From Endomicrobium proavitum (GTDB lineage Bacteria > Elusimicrobiota > Endomicrobiia > Endomicrobiales > Endomicrobiaceae), in contig NZ_CP009498.1 of NCBI RefSeq assembly GCF_001027545.1, positions 868,001 to 932,000 on the forward strand: a stretch of 64,000 nt of DNA, given 5' to 3'. Shown here piece by piece: positions 1 to 5,358 of the stretch. Made by a program: the position numbers and the translations under genes. Position 1 is the first letter of the stretch; each line of letters begins with the position of its first letter. Under the pieces are notes generated by a model. It searched no databases and was not told the DNA's origin. It worked only from the letters and a program-made list of their open reading frames with translations.

Positions 1-529
1 TTGTCCACTCGCGCATAGTTTCGCTGACCGCGTCTTTAAGAGTTTGCGTTCCCGAAGTAACCGCGTTAACTTTTGCGCCGAGTAATTTCATTCTGTAAAC
101 GTTTAACGCTTGGCGACGGGTATCTTCTTTGCCCATAAAAATTTCGCATTCCATGCCAAACAAAGCCGCTGCGGTTGCCGCGGCAACTCCGTGCTGACCT
201 GCGCCTGTTTCGGCAATAACTCTGGTTTTCCCCATTTTTTTTGCAAGCAAAACTTGTCCGAGAACATTATTTATTTTGTGCGAGCCTGTATGGTTTAAAT
301 CTTCCCTTTTTAAATAAATTTTTGCTCCGCCCAAATCTTCCGTTATATTTTTTGCAAAATACAGCAGCGACGGACGCGCCGCATAATTTGCAAGCAAATC
401 TTTCAATTCATTTTGAAAAGATTCGTCGTTTTTATAATTGTTATACGCCTGTTCCAGTTCGTCAAGCGCTTTCATAAGAGTTTCCGGAACATACTGCCCG
501 CCGAAATCTCCGTATCTTCCTTTTTTCAT
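1..529 (-). CDS. trpB: Tryptophan synthase beta chain, 3' part outside window
   Basis: TrpB condenses indole with L-serine in the last step of tryptophan synthesis, using PLP. The reverse strand reads from ATG at 529 into [18 protein letters not shown], then a [15 protein letters not shown] block holding the PLP lysine and an [12 protein letters not shown] block; all three are strongly conserved in TrpB. About 176 residues are present; the usual length is about 390-400, so the rest lies left of the window. The ATG overlaps the trpF stop by 4 bases (ATGA), which indicates translational coupling. It is the last visible gene of the trpEGDCFB operon; trpA probably follows but is not in view. Identity is certain; completeness is not. 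Confidence 0.97.
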
Positions 530-1131
530 AATCTGCATCCTCTTACAAGCGATATTATTTTTGATATTTTTTTCTCATCTTTAACGCCGCCGGTTTCAAC
601 GCCCGAAGAAACGTCTATGCAATAGGGGCTCAACGTTTTTACAGCGTCGCAAACGTTATCTAAATTTATTCCGCCCGCCAAAAAATACGGCTTTTTATAA
701 TCTTTTATTAAATCCCAATCAAAAGTTTTCCCGCTTCCCGCTCCGGAGTCAAAAAGAAGATAGTCGGCGTTTGAAGGCAATTGAGAATTGAGAATTGAGA
801 ATTGAGAATTTATTTTAACAACTTTAATAATTTCATTATCAACCGCATCTTTAAGCTTTTTTATATATTCATCATCTTCATCGCCGTGAAGTTGAACAAG
901 ATTAATTATTTTTTCTTTGCATAAAAGTTCAATATTTTTAATGTCTTCATTTACAAAAACGCCTGCGGACTTTATTCTTTCGTCCATATTCTCTCTAAGT
1001 TCCGCGGCGGCGCAAACAGATACCTGCCTTTTGCTTGGAGCAAAAACAAACCCTGCATAATCAGGCAAATATTTATTTACATATTTAATGTCTTCGGTTC
1101 TTTTTAAGCCGCAAATTTTTATTTTAGACAT
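526..1131 (-). CDS. trpF: Phosphoribosylanthranilate isomerase
   Basis: TrpF isomerises phosphoribosylanthranilate to CdRP, the third step of the tryptophan branch, as a single-domain TIM barrel. Visible signatures are KICGLK at residues 5-10 with the catalytic Cys7, VQLHGDE near 79, LLFDS with the general-acid Asp128, and LAGGIN plus DVSSGVE near the C terminus (phosphate binding). At 201 residues it has normal length. Residues 108-118 ([11 protein letters not shown]) are encoded by a tandem heptanucleotide repeat and form an insert between two core strands just before LLFDS. The gene starts two bases after the trpC stop and overlaps trpB by 4 bases. The core catalytic residues are intact, so I expect an active enzyme despite the repeat. 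Confidence 0.95.
776..810. repeat. Heptanucleotide tandem repeat inside trpF
   Basis: Four perfect copies of GAGAATT (783-810) follow GGCAATT on the plus strand. Read on the coding strand, three units make 21 bases, so the frame is kept and a 7-residue period (SILNSQF-like) is produced. The same GGCAATT-plus-four-heptamer block, followed by TATT, occurs inside folK at 50484-50518. A decayed version lies before dapA near 57500. Confidence 0.9.
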
Positions 1132-1132
1132 T

Positions 1133-1909
1133 TTACCCTTTTAATTGCGCAAGCGCTGCTTTTTTATCTGCGCTTTTAATGATTGATTCTCCAACTAAAA
1201 TTGCATTTACATTATTTTCTTTAAGCAGTTTAACGTCTTCAGGTTTTGAAATACCGCTTTCGGCGACAAATAAAATTTCTTTCGGAACAAATTTGCGCAG
1301 ACGAACGCTGTTATTTAAATTTACTTCAAAAGTTTTAAGATTGCGGTTATTTACGCCAATAATTTTTGCGCCTGCCCATAACGCTGTTTCAACCTCTTTC
1401 TCGTCGTGAGCCTCTATAAGAGCGGAAAGCCCCAGACGTTCGGCAAGAGCTATAAATTCTTTCAATTTTTCCGGCGTAAGTATTGATACAATTAAAAGTA
1501 TCGCGTCGGCTTTAATAAATTTTGCCTGATATATTTGATACTCGTCTATAATAAAATCTTTACGCAAAACAGGTATTGAAACAGCTTCTTTAATTTCTTT
1601 TAGGTATGCGTCTTTGCCCTGAAAAAAATCCGGTTCGGTTAAAACCGAAATTGCATCGGCGCCGGCGATTTCGTATTCAACGGCGATTTTTTTATAATCA
1701 AAATCTTTAACTATTAATCCTTTTGACGGCGACGCTTTTTTTACTTCGCATATAAAAGACATTGCGTCTTTTTTTAAAGCCAGCTCAAAAGGATACGTAA
1801 AATTATTTTCAATTTGAACGCGCGGCTTTAATTCGTCTAAAGACAAAATTTGTTTTTGCCTTGCGACTCTCGCTTTGGTAGCCTCAACAAGTTTATCAAG
1901 TATTGTCAT
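1133..1909 (-). CDS. trpC: Indole-3-glycerol phosphate synthase
   Basis: TrpC closes the indole ring by decarboxylation of CdRP. The single-domain TIM barrel shows the expected active-site blocks: CEVKKASPSKG (residues 54-64) with catalytic lysine and glutamate, VLRKDFIIDEYQ near 115, GVNNRNLKTF near 190 and an AESGI phosphate-binding turn near 215. Length (258) is typical of the monofunctional enzyme. Its first codon overlaps the trpD stop by 4 bases and trpF follows after one spacer base, so the three genes are tightly coupled. Nothing in the sequence is unusual. Confidence 0.97.
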   Translation of the reverse strand: MTILDKLVEATKARVARQKQILSLDELKPRVQIENNFTYPFELALKKDAMSFICEVKKASPSKGLIVKDFDYKKIAVEYEIAGADAISVLTEPDFFQGKDAYLKEIKEAVSIPVLRKDFIIDEYQIYQAKFIKADAILLIVSILTPEKLKEFIALAERLGLSALIEAHDEKEVETALWAGAKIIGVNNRNLKTFEVNLNNSVRLRKFVPKEILFVAESGISKPEDVKLLKENNVNAILVGESIIKSADKKAALAQLKG

Positions 1910-2925
1910 TTTGCTATTTCCTGTGAAAGTTGGACAAAATCTTTAAGTTTTTGCAAAGCCTTGCCGTCGTCTATTATTTTCCCCGCCGTTTTCACGCAGT
2001 CTCTCAATGTTCTGTTGTCGTTAGCCATATATAGACATATTGCGGAATTTAATAAAACTACGTCTCTTTTAGGTCCACGCTCTTTGCCGCTTAAAATATC
2101 TAAAGCTATTTGCGCATTTTCCTGCGGAGTGCCGCCTACCAAATCTGAAAGTTTGCATCTTTTAAGACCAAACTGTTCGGGCGTAATAAAATAGCTGTTA
2201 ATTTTTCCGTAAGAAACTTCGCAAACCGTTGTAGCTCCCGTAAGAGTTACCTCGTCAAGCCCGTCGTGACCGTGAACAACAACCGCTCTTTTCACGCCGA
2301 GGTTTGCCAAAACGTTTGCAAGAGGTTCAACTAAATTTTCATCGTAAACGCCAAGCAGCTGCATATTTGCGCCGGCAGGGTTTGCAAGAGGCCCTAAAAT
2401 ATTAAAAATTGTGCGCGCGCCAAGCTCCTTTCTAACGGGCGCTACAAATTTCATGGCAGAATGATATATCGGCGCCGCCATAAAACATATATCTATTTTA
2501 TCTAAAATTTTTTGATTTTGCTCGGCGGTTAAATTAATATTTACTCCTAACGCTTCAAGAACGTCCGCGCTGCCGGATTTGCTGGACACGCTTCTATTGC
2601 CGTGCTTTGCAACTGGAACGCCGCCTGCGGCAATTACAATAGAAGAAACCGTGGATATGTTAAAAGAATAAAGCTCGTCGCCGCCGGTGCCGACTATATC
2701 TAAGACGTCTCTGCCCGGATTTAACTTTAACGCCTTTTCTCTCATAACAAGAGCGCACGCGGTTATTTCGTCTATGGTCTCGCCTTTCAAACGCATTGCG
2801 GTTAAAAAAGAACCTATCTGCGCCGGCGTGGTTTGCCCTTCCATTATTTCAAACATAACGCTTTTTGTTGTTTCAAGCGAAAGATGTTTTCCGTTTAACA
2901 GTTCGCTTATGGCTTGTTTAATCAT
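1906..2925 (-). CDS. trpD: Anthranilate phosphoribosyltransferase
   Basis: TrpD transfers the phosphoribosyl group of PRPP to anthranilate. The GTGGDELYSFNIST block forms the PRPP site, KHGNRSVSSKSGSADVLEALG follows with the anthranilate and metal contacts, and a VVHGHDGLDE stretch lies further on, all characteristic of this family. I place the start at the ATG at 2925 (MIKQAISELL) because GGAGG lies a few bases upstream. A longer frame opening with TTG at 2937 would put the ribosome site inside the gene. This gives 339 residues, the usual length, and an 8-base overlap with trpG. It is a free-standing TrpD, not fused to TrpG. Confidence 0.96.
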   Translation of the reverse strand: MIKQAISELLNGKHLSLETTKSVMFEIMEGQTTPAQIGSFLTAMRLKGETIDEITACALVMREKALKLNPGRDVLDIVGTGGDELYSFNISTVSSIVIAAGGVPVAKHGNRSVSSKSGSADVLEALGVNINLTAEQNQKILDKIDICFMAAPIYHSAMKFVAPVRKELGARTIFNILGPLANPAGANMQLLGVYDENLVEPLANVLANLGVKRAVVVHGHDGLDEVTLTGATTVCEVSYGKINSYFITPEQFGLKRCKLSDLVGGTPQENAQIALDILSGKERGPKRDVVLLNSAICLYMANDNRTLRDCVKTAGKIIDDGKALQKLKDFVQLSQEIAK

Positions 2926-3499
2926 TGCATCCTCCAAGCTTCAGGAAGTTTTCAATTATTATAATTCCGTTTTTTGTTAAAATTGATTCCGGATGAAATT
3001 GCAGTCCGTATAAATCGTAATCGCGGTGTTTTACGCCCATAACCTGACCGTCTTCATCTTCGGCTATAACAAGAAGTTCGTCGGGCAAAGTTTTTCTGTC
3101 CGCAATTAAAGAATGATATCTTGCGGCTTTTATAACCGGAGCAAGCCCTCTAAAAACCGGACTTCCGTTTGCAATTTGAACGTCGCTTGTTTTACCGTGC
3201 ATAAGAGCTTTTGCGTAAACAATATCTCCGCCGAACGCCTCGCATATTGCCTGATGTCCAAGACATACGCCGAAAATCGGGATTTTTCCTTTAAAATATT
3301 TTATAGCTTCTTCCATAATTCCTGCGTCCGCAGGTCTGCCGGGTCCCGGAGAAAAAACTAAATGCGACGGATTTAATTTTTCTATTTCCGCAATTGAAAC
3401 CTCGTCGTTTTTTACAACTTTAACGTCCGAATTTTGCATGCCGATAAATTGATACAAGTTATAAGAAAAACTATCATAGTTATCTATTATCAAAATCAT
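2918..3499 (-). CDS. trpG: Anthranilate synthase component II (glutamine amidotransferase)
   Basis: TrpG is the class-I glutamine amidotransferase that supplies ammonia to TrpE. It opens with MILIIDNYDSFSYNL, has the nucleophile Cys79 in GVCLGHQAICEAFGG and ends with the LQFHPESIL block that carries the catalytic His and Glu. Length (193) is standard for an unfused subunit. Overlaps with trpE (4 bases) and trpD (8 bases) support stoichiometric coupled translation. A bifunctional role with PabB in folate synthesis is possible, as is known for some bacteria; nothing here decides this. Confidence 0.96.
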   Translation of the reverse strand: MILIIDNYDSFSYNLYQFIGMQNSDVKVVKNDEVSIAEIEKLNPSHLVFSPGPGRPADAGIMEEAIKYFKGKIPIFGVCLGHQAICEAFGGDIVYAKALMHGKTSDVQIANGSPVFRGLAPVIKAARYHSLIADRKTLPDELLVIAEDEDGQVMGVKHRDYDLYGLQFHPESILTKNGIIIIENFLKLGGCND

Positions 3500-4965
3500 T
3501 TCGCATCTCCTTCGGAAGCGATTTTTATCGCGGAAACTACAGCCTGCGCTTTATTTAAACATTCCTGAAATTCTTTTTGCGGATTGCTGTCTGCAACAAT
3601 GCCAGCTCCCGCCTGAACGTAAATTTTTCCGTTTTGAAATTTTGCCATTCTTATGGCTATGCACATATCCATATTTCCCGTAAAATCTATATAACCTATC
3701 GCGCCGCCGTAAGTTCCTCTTTTATGTTTTTCAAGAGAATTTATAATTTCGCAGGCTTTAATTTTCGGCGCGCCCGAAAGCGTTCCCGCCGGAAGAACCG
3801 CAGCCACGGCGTCAAATTGGTCGTAACCGGATTTAATTTTTCCTTTAATAACGGAAGCTATATGGCTTACGTGCGAAAATTTTAAAATTTTCATATACTC
3901 TTCAACTTTCACGGAACCGAACTCGCTTATTTTTCCTAAATCGTTTCTTCCAAGATCAACAAGCATATTGTGCTCGGAAAGTTCTTTTTCATCGCTTAAA
4001 AGCGCGGCAATTAATTCATCGTCTTCTTTCGGAGTTTTACCTCTTTTAGTTGTGCCGGCTAACGCGTAATTTGTAAGCTCCCCGTCTTTTAGCGTTACAA
4101 GAGTTTCCGGCGACGCGCCTGCAATTTCGGAGTCCGCAAAATTCAAATAAAACATATACGGCGACGGGTTTATAGTTCTTAACGTTCTGTAAGTTTGCAA
4201 AAGATTTCCTTCAAACTGCGCTTCTATGCCGTTTGAAATTACAGCTTGGAAAATATCGCCCTCGTGAATATGATGTTTTATTGTCGCAATCATCTTTGAA
4301 AAATCTTCTTCGTTGTGCAAAAGATTCAACTCGGATTTAAGCCCTGATTTTACGTTGCTTTCTTTTAATTGCGACAGTATTAATTTTTCAAGAACATCTA
4401 TTTCTTGTTGAGCTTTTTTAAAACTGTTTTCAAAATCTTGGACGGGAGCATTCACAATTATAAAAATTTTCTGTTTGAAATGGTCAAACGCTATAACTTT
4501 ATCAAAAAGCATAAGATGCAAATCGTCAAAATTTTCAGCATTTCTGTTTGTAAGATTTAAAGATTTCTCAACGTATTTAATATAATCGTAAGAAAAATAT
4601 CCCACAAGCCCGCCGGTAAAAGGCGGAAGCTCTGCAATTTTCGGACTTTTATAGCGCGACAAAATTCCTCTTAAAACTACAGCCGGATTTTCTATTTTTG
4701 TTTCTTTTTTATCGCCTGCGGTTATAACGGCTTTTCCATCGTTATATTGAATGCTGACCGTAGGGTCGCAGCCTAAAAACGAGTATCTTCCCCAATTTTC
4801 CACGCTTTCAACGCTTTCCAAAAGAAAGCATTTTTTATTTTGCGCGACAAAATTTCTTAAAACTTCAACAGACGTTTTAACGTCGGCAAAAAGTTCTTTG
4901 TAAATAGGTATAACCGTATAATCTTTAAAATACTTTTCTGCTTGCTCGGGCGTAGGTTTTATCAT
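3496..4965 (-). CDS. trpE: Anthranilate synthase component I
   Basis: TrpE converts chorismate plus ammonia to anthranilate and is normally feedback-inhibited by tryptophan. The N-terminal part has LLESVE (the tryptophan-sensing element of the family) and GGLVGYFSYDYI. The C-terminal chorismate-binding domain shows SPYMFYL, GASPETLV, AGTTKRGKT, DLGRNDLG and PAGTLSGAPK, then GAIGYIDF. I start at the ATG at 4965, preceded by AGAGGA, giving 489 residues. An upstream in-frame extension to 5079 would run back through the T-box terminator hairpin and is not credible. It is the first gene of the operon. Confidence 0.96.
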   Translation of the reverse strand: MIKPTPEQAEKYFKDYTVIPIYKELFADVKTSVEVLRNFVAQNKKCFLLESVESVENWGRYSFLGCDPTVSIQYNDGKAVITAGDKKETKIENPAVVLRGILSRYKSPKIAELPPFTGGLVGYFSYDYIKYVEKSLNLTNRNAENFDDLHLMLFDKVIAFDHFKQKIFIIVNAPVQDFENSFKKAQQEIDVLEKLILSQLKESNVKSGLKSELNLLHNEEDFSKMIATIKHHIHEGDIFQAVISNGIEAQFEGNLLQTYRTLRTINPSPYMFYLNFADSEIAGASPETLVTLKDGELTNYALAGTTKRGKTPKEDDELIAALLSDEKELSEHNMLVDLGRNDLGKISEFGSVKVEEYMKILKFSHVSHIASVIKGKIKSGYDQFDAVAAVLPAGTLSGAPKIKACEIINSLEKHKRGTYGGAIGYIDFTGNMDMCIAIRMAKFQNGKIYVQAGAGIVADSNPQKEFQECLNKAQAVVSAIKIASEGDAK

Positions 4966-5010
4966 AAATCCTCTTTTTTTACGTTTGACGGTTATTTTTA
5001 TACTTTGCAT

Positions 5011-5060
5011 AAAAATAAAAAAATCCGTCGTCGGCATAGAAAAACTATGCCAAGGACGGA
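5011..5060 (-). terminator. Regulated intrinsic terminator of the T-box leader
   Basis: On the minus strand TCCGTC and GGCATAG pair with CTATGCC and GACGGA around a short loop (hairpin 5024-5060), followed by a run of seven U and further U-rich sequence. The left arm begins inside the sequence that would form the antiterminator with the T-box core, the usual mutually exclusive arrangement. Confidence 0.88.
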
Positions 5061-5325
5061 ATAAGTTCCGCGGTGCCACCTTGCTTTGCGAAAAACAGTT
5101 AACTTATAGTTTTCGCACTCTTTGCGAAGCGCAAACACGCTTCTCACTTGTAACGCTTGTGCTGCGTCGCGGAGTACTCGGAAAACTTCGTTTCTTTTAT
5201 AGAAACTACTTATTCCTTTGACCGCGCCCTCGGTGGTCCAACCGGGTAATCTGCGTTGTGCGGGAATCTCAGCTGCGCCCGCTCTCTGTAACTGCACAAT
5301 TACCGTCTTCCACGTCAACAGTTTA
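5011..5325 (-). promoter_or_regulatory. T-box leader (tRNA-Trp sensing) of the trp operon
   Basis: The 5' leader of trpE contains the T-box core AAGGTGGCACCGCGG (minus strand, 5068-5082). T-box RNAs bind uncharged tRNA and switch an antiterminator on. The bulge reads UGGC, which would pair with NCCA ends whose discriminator is G, as in bacterial tRNA-Trp. Upstream are a Stem-I-like region with an AGAGA element and a TGG-A stretch at 5240-5238 that is the best candidate specifier codon (Trp). The core is followed by a competing terminator and then trpE. Identity of the class is firm; the exact specifier assignment is my inference without folding. Confidence 0.92.
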
Positions 5326-5329
5326 GAGA

Positions 5330-5358
5330 AGTATATGATATTTTTTATTTTATGTCAA
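5330..5358 (-). promoter_or_regulatory. Sigma70-type promoter of the trp operon
   Basis: TTGACA (5358-5353) and TATACT (5335-5330) are separated by 17 bases on the minus strand. Transcription would start near 5323, at the beginning of the T-box leader. This is a near-consensus housekeeping promoter. Confidence 0.85.

What the first reader, a model, noticed from the sequence alone, without database searches (positions are those of the whole stretch)
5011..5358. Tryptophan T-box leader outside the usual phyla
A complete T-box (AAGGTGGCACCGCGG core, TGG candidate specifier, terminator, consensus promoter) controls trpEGDCFB. T-boxes are known mainly from Firmicutes and some Actinobacteria, Chloroflexi and Deltaproteobacteria. 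If the host is an Elusimicrobiota member, as gene content suggests, this is an uncommon placement that may reflect transfer of the whole operon. The bulge UGGC matches a G discriminator of tRNA-Trp.
Basis: partly seen in the sequence, partly recalled or inferred. Interest (0 to 1): 0.6.

Follow-up and report, generated by a model that had tools for sequence, protein, structure and literature searches.

The report
Borrowed tryptophan T-box in Endomicrobium
The tryptophan operon of this termite-gut bacterium (phylum Elusimicrobiota) is switched by a T-box, an RNA that senses empty tryptophan tRNA and is otherwise typical of Gram-positive bacteria, and gene trees show that operon and switch were taken over together from Clostridia, apparently twice within the family.

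Summary
The minus strand at 5358-5011 carries a promoter, a full-length T-box and a terminator in front of a complete trpEGDCFBA operon. The genome has exactly the published length of Endomicrobium proavitum Rsa215, so the host guess (Elusimicrobiota) is right. Rfam RF00230 matches over its whole length (E 1.5e-15) at 70.8 bits, below the curated cut-off of 93; 22 of 47 T-boxes in four Clostridia also miss that cut-off. UGG lies in the specifier column, and tRNA-Trp has anticodon CCA and acceptor end GCCA, pairing with the UGGC bulge. It is not a lone case: 39 of 77 Endomicrobiaceae genomes have a T-box, 36 of them before trpE. The rest of the phylum has almost none. The transfer suspicion is confirmed and sharpened: concatenated Trp proteins place Endomicrobiaceae among Bacillota, in two separate places; one Endomicrobiaceae clade (AU p 1.7e-15) and one Elusimicrobiota clade (3.1e-10) are both rejected. 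E. proavitum and five relatives have a changed codon-presenting loop, not found in any other T-box examined. Known kind of element, new phylum, well documented cassette transfer. Nothing was tested at the bench.

The parts
5353..5358 (-). -35 hexamer TTGACA
   Evidence: consensus scan, 17-nt spacer; sequence
5330..5335 (-). -10 hexamer TATACT
   Evidence: consensus scan
5049..5327 (-). RF00230 T-box match, model positions 1-219
   Evidence: 70.8 bits, E 1.5e-15 in the genome, below gathering score 93
5228..5324 (-). Stem I with GA motif (UGA / GAG), AGAGA distal element and specifier loop
   Evidence: Rfam alignment; conserved and covarying helices in 23 leaders
5305..5309 (-). 5' strand of the variant specifier loop, AAGAC (relatives: AGAUAAC)
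5241..5244 (-). 3' strand of the variant specifier loop before the codon, CGGU (relatives: AAA)
5238..5240 (-). specifier UGG (Trp), followed by A-CC
   Evidence: specifier column of the Rfam alignment; conserved in relatives
5168..5226 (-). Stem II with AGUA element (5178-5175)
   Evidence: CGCGG/CCGCG, 3 of 5 pairs with changes on both sides, 100% of cells paired
5151..5167 (-). Stem IIA/B region (ACGC/GCGU)
   Evidence: Rfam alignment
5087..5117 (-). Stem III (UGCGAAAAC / GUUUUUCGCA)
   Evidence: Rfam alignment; fold
5052..5082 (-). antiterminator with T-box core; UGGC bulge at 5078-5075
   Evidence: fold with 7-nt bulge, -7.4 kcal/mol; invariant lower helix in 23 leaders
5011..5060 (-). 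terminator hairpin 5060-5024 and U-run to 5011
   Evidence: -23.7 kcal/mol, shares its 5' arm with the antiterminator
3496..4965 (-). trpE (ATG at 4965)
   Evidence: TIGR00564 above cut-off; ORF list shows a longer GTG start at 5079 inside the leader, taken as spurious
2918..3499 (-). trpG
   Evidence: TIGR00566 above cut-off
1906..2937 (-). trpD
   Evidence: TIGR01245 above cut-off
1133..1909 (-). trpC
   Evidence: NF001377 above cut-off
526..1131 (-). trpF
   Evidence: best match phosphoribosylanthranilate isomerase, E 7e-55
1..538 (-). trpB (start; it runs on beyond the window edge, followed by trpA)
   Evidence: L080 4346-5539 and 3580-4353 minus; TIGR00263 and TIGR00262 above cut-off

Best explanation
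It is a canonical, transcription-controlling (class I) tryptophan T-box riboswitch acquired by lateral transfer from Clostridia together with the trp operon that it controls. When tryptophan runs short, uncharged tRNA-Trp docks on the nascent leader: its anticodon CCA pairs with the Stem I specifier UGG and its free 3' end GCCA pairs with the UGGC bulge, which holds the antiterminator and lets RNA polymerase read on into trpEGDCFBA. Charged tRNA-Trp cannot make the second contact, the terminator at 5060-5024 forms, and transcription stops. Shown by computation: sequence, architecture, alternative folds, conserved pairing in relatives, cognate tRNA, operon content, gene trees. Inferred: that the switch works in the cell as in Bacillus, the direction of transfer, and the number of transfers (two).
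For: Full-length RF00230 match, the only one in the genome; antiterminator and terminator folds; tRNA-Trp anticodon CCA and end GCCA; complete trp operon downstream; T-box before trpE in 36 Endomicrobiaceae genomes; paired changes in 11 of 26 pairs, 97.7% of cells paired; TrpE 52-58% to Clostridia against at most 44% to other Elusimicrobiota; 67 of the 80 nearest outside loci have a T-box core before trpE; concatenated tree and AU tests.
Against: No expression data. Score below the Rfam gathering cut-off. Stem I alone folds otherwise in the minimum-energy model. The specifier loop departs from the conserved form. Outside sequences in the trees were picked by likeness to the family, and for the group with E. 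proavitum the direction of transfer rests on the rooting.
Confidence: 0.88

Rival explanations
1. The T-box and its operon are ancestral in Elusimicrobiota (vertical descent); the other families lost the T-box.
For: Other Elusimicrobiota also have trp operons, often in the same gene order; a thrS T-box exists in another family of the phylum (L041, L043).
Against: Trp proteins of the family group with Bacillota, not with the phylum; AU p 3.1e-10 against one Elusimicrobiota clade. No RF00230 match near trpE elsewhere in the phylum.
Confidence: 0.04
2. One acquisition by the ancestor of Endomicrobiaceae, with later spread from Endomicrobiaceae to some Clostridia or replacement in one lineage, instead of two separate acquisitions.
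For: All genera of the family with a trp operon except one share the leader; branches in the middle of the trees are short.
Against: AU p 1.7e-15 (six proteins) and 0.014 (TrpE) against one family clade; genera g10, g12, g13 nest inside Bacillota.
Confidence: 0.2
3. The leader of E. proavitum is a decaying relic that no longer senses tRNA; transcription is governed by the terminator alone or by readthrough.
For: Decay does occur in related genomes: in G276 and G284 trpE is open but the leader has no RF00230 match (L092, L097). This leader scores lower than many relatives, and its isolated Stem I folds otherwise.
Against: Core, bulge, GA motif, UGG, antiterminator and terminator are intact, and the same loop form recurs in six genomes of three genera, with the neighbouring helix kept by paired changes.
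Confidence: 0.08

Closest known systems
Trp T-box leaders before trpE in Clostridia (Acetobacterium wieringae L116, Desulfosporosinus L123)
   Same: Same architecture, UGG specifier followed by A-CC, AAGGUGG core, trp operon behind; nearest trp proteins
   Different: Host phylum; donor-like genomes carry 6-21 T-boxes, E. proavitum one; specifier loop AGAUAA/AAA there, AAGAC/CGGU here
Trp T-boxes before trpE and a trpB-like gene in Dehalococcoides (Chloroflexi), reported in PMC2494555
   Same: Host outside Firmicutes, trp target
   Different: Other phylum; sequences not compared here
Other Endomicrobiaceae trp leaders (G292, G295, G297, G298 and others)
   Same: Same position, core, stems and target
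   Different: Standard specifier loop; only G291, G293, G294, G296 and G301 share the variant

Membership tests
T-box riboswitch, class I (RF00230) | Conserved T-box core and antiterminator with UGGN bulge | tested here: met
   AAGGUGGCACCGCGG; fold with 7-nt bulge; invariant lower helix in 23 leaders
T-box riboswitch, class I (RF00230) | Stem I with a specifier codon in an internal loop | tested here: met
   UGG in the specifier column of the Rfam alignment; flanking helices conserved and covarying. The minimum-energy fold of the isolated E. proavitum stem differs
T-box riboswitch, class I (RF00230) | Mutually exclusive terminator with U-run | tested here: met
   Shared arm, -23.7 against -7.4 kcal/mol
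T-box riboswitch, class I (RF00230) | Cognate tRNA: anticodon fits the specifier, discriminator fits the bulge | tested here: met
   tRNA-Trp CCA, end GCCA
T-box riboswitch, class I (RF00230) | Target gene for the same amino acid | tested here: met
   trpEGDCFBA
T-box riboswitch, class I (RF00230) | Rfam gathering score of 93 bits (a curation threshold, not a biological feature) | tested here: not met
   70.8 bits, E 1.5e-15; 22 of 47 T-boxes in four Clostridia also fail
T-box riboswitch, class I (RF00230) | AGUA/GAA loop E motif in the specifier loop (usual in most T-boxes, PMC4695836; not universal) | tested here: not met
   5' AAGAC / 3' CGGU; standard relatives and Clostridial Trp leaders have AGAUAA/AAA
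T-box riboswitch, class I (RF00230) | tRNA-dependent antitermination | not testable with these tools
   needs transcription assays

The most novel reading that the evidence does not exclude
Six Endomicrobiaceae, E. proavitum among them, use a T-box specifier loop of a new form (5' A(A/G)GA(C), 3' GGU-UGG-(A/C)) in place of the AGAUAA/AAA module of the Clostridial Trp T-boxes examined. The form is patchy across three genera, as if the codon-reading Stem I were exchanged as a module between leaders. If it binds tRNA-Trp, it shows a different way of presenting the codon.
Probability: 0.35. Interest if true: 0.6.

Novelty: new member of a known kind. Interest (0 to 1): 0.5.

Why it matters
The literature leaves open whether T-boxes outside Firmicutes descend from a common ancestor or were transferred (PMC3766115, PMC2494555). 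Here the switch, its operon and its likely source clades can all be traced, and the case supports transfer, apparently twice into one family. E. proavitum can be grown, so function can be tested. Relatives in which the switch decays while trpE stays open bear on whether endosymbionts of this family supply tryptophan to their flagellate hosts.

Tried and rejected
The Rfam cut-off failure was considered as refutation and rejected after calibration on Clostridia. An apparent Trp T-box before a tryptophanase-like pseudogene in G253 (L045) turned out to read UAC (Tyr) in the specifier column. The weak RF00230 hits in G326 (L049) and in G255 contig 10 (L048) showed no recognisable T-box on reading and are probably chance. 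Pattern hits of the variant loop in one Bacillota genome (L256) and in G081 (L257) are not T-boxes. A single origin of the variant loop on the TrpE tree is neither shown nor excluded (three changes; AU p 0.18). The 106-aa ORF at 4998-5318 and the GTG start of trpE at 5079 are taken as spurious because they lie on the leader.

Full report
Host. Family code f1 is therefore taken as Endomicrobiaceae.

The element. On the minus strand a TTGACA-17-TATACT promoter precedes a leader that matches Rfam RF00230 over all 219 positions. It is the only match in the genome. In the alignment UGG (5240-5238) occupies the specifier column, followed by A-CC. Antiterminator (5082-5052) and terminator (5060-5024) share one arm and exclude each other. 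The tRNA-Trp found in the genome has anticodon CCA and ends G-CCA, so both contacts of a T-box can form: CCA with UGG, GCCA with UGGC. The operon behind it is complete: trpE, G, D, C, F, B, A.

Score. 70.8 bits is under the gathering score of 93, and the gathering-threshold scan of the window lists no T-box. The same search gives 47 T-boxes in four Clostridia, of which 22 fall under 93, and Acetobacterium's trpE leader gets 79.9. The cut-off is strict and does not count against the finding.

Relatives. Among 341 Elusimicrobiota genomes 42 have a match, 39 of them in the host's family of 77 genomes. In 36 of these trpE follows, once only after 1.1 kb; one leader stands before trpF-trpB, one is cut by a contig end just after what reads like a TrpE start, and one genome has only a Tyr-type leader. 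Nearly all trp leaders show UGG in the specifier place. Across 23 leaders 97.7% of the cells in 26 proposed pairs form standard pairs, and 11 pairs change on both sides, 5 of them in the helix above the specifier loop; none of 500 shuffles reaches these values, and sliding the partners drops pairing to 38-51%.

Origin. TrpE of E. proavitum is 52-58% identical to its nearest Clostridial relatives and at most 44% to other Elusimicrobiota, which have their own trp operon, often in the same order, without a matched T-box. 67 of the 80 best outside loci have a T-box core before trpE. In the tree of concatenated TrpE, G, D, C, B and A the other Elusimicrobiota are one clade (100). The family falls in two places among Bacillota: six rows including E. 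proavitum with Acetobacterium (99), and three rows (genera g10, g12, g13) with Desulfosporosinus (97). AU tests reject a single family clade (p 1.7e-15) and a single Elusimicrobiota clade (p 3.1e-10). TrpE alone agrees, and separate TrpB and TrpD trees also put the family among the outside rows. The nested position of the second group argues for transfer from Bacillota; for the first group direction is less certain. Limits: outside sequences were chosen by likeness with two peptide patterns, and the concatenated tree used a simple model and a quick search.

Variant loop. In standard leaders the specifier loop is 5' AGAUAAC / 3' AAA-UGG-A. E. proavitum, G291, G293, G294, G296 and G301 have 5' A(A/G)GA(C) / 3' GGU-UGG-(A/C), always both strands together. 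The pattern occurs in no T-box of 398 Bacillota genomes; as a measure of what such a scan can find, the standard pattern hits 6 of 101. The 55 Bacillota T-box fragments with a UGG specifier that could be read have CAAA, TAAA, GAAA or TGAA before it. Stem I of G291/G293 is 94-98% identical to that of G294/G296 of another genus, while Stems II-III of G291/G293 are closest to G292 of their own genus: either the Stem I module was exchanged or the change arose more than once. Whether it alters tRNA binding is unknown.

Mechanism. By established knowledge of T-boxes, uncharged tRNA-Trp stabilises the antiterminator and opens the operon. This step is inferred here, not shown.

Literature. Within the held library one paper names T-boxes and Elusimicrobia together, and it treats HisR in E. 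minutum; none links Endomicrobia with riboswitches. Surveys from 2008 and 2013 list no Elusimicrobiota and leave open whether T-boxes outside Firmicutes are ancestral or transferred. The 2024 study of gene transfer in Endomicrobia does not mention T-boxes and names tryptophan once. TBDB (23,535 sequences) could not be searched and may hold entries, so novelty is claimed only as 'not found described'.

Noticed in passing
L002, L003, L004, L005, L009, L032 (genus g13): Five genomes of genus g13 have a second T-box before ilvB (acetolactate synthase large subunit) with a GUC (Val) specifier; in L009 the distal part of Stem I is missing and the specifier reads UUC.
   Followed up: partly
L041 2013-2299 and L043 (G103, G104, family f16): A T-box before thrS with an apparent ACC (Thr) specifier and UGGA bulge, in another family of Elusimicrobiota.
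   Followed up: partly
L045 2299-2066 minus (G253): A Tyr-type T-box (UAC in the specifier column) before a broken tryptophanase / tyrosine phenol-lyase gene; intact relatives in G292, G294, G308 and G296 have no T-box core upstream.
   Followed up: partly
L092 (G276), L097 (G284): The trp leader has decayed (no RF00230 match at E 0.01) in front of an open trpE, in small genomes of genus g3, probably flagellate endosymbionts.
   Followed up: partly
L105 (G303): A family member whose TrpE (62%) has no T-box upstream at all.
   Followed up: no
L169, L174: Methanomassiliicoccales archaea carry TrpE of the Clostridial type (52% to E. proavitum) without a T-box core upstream: another apparent transfer of trpE.
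   Followed up: no
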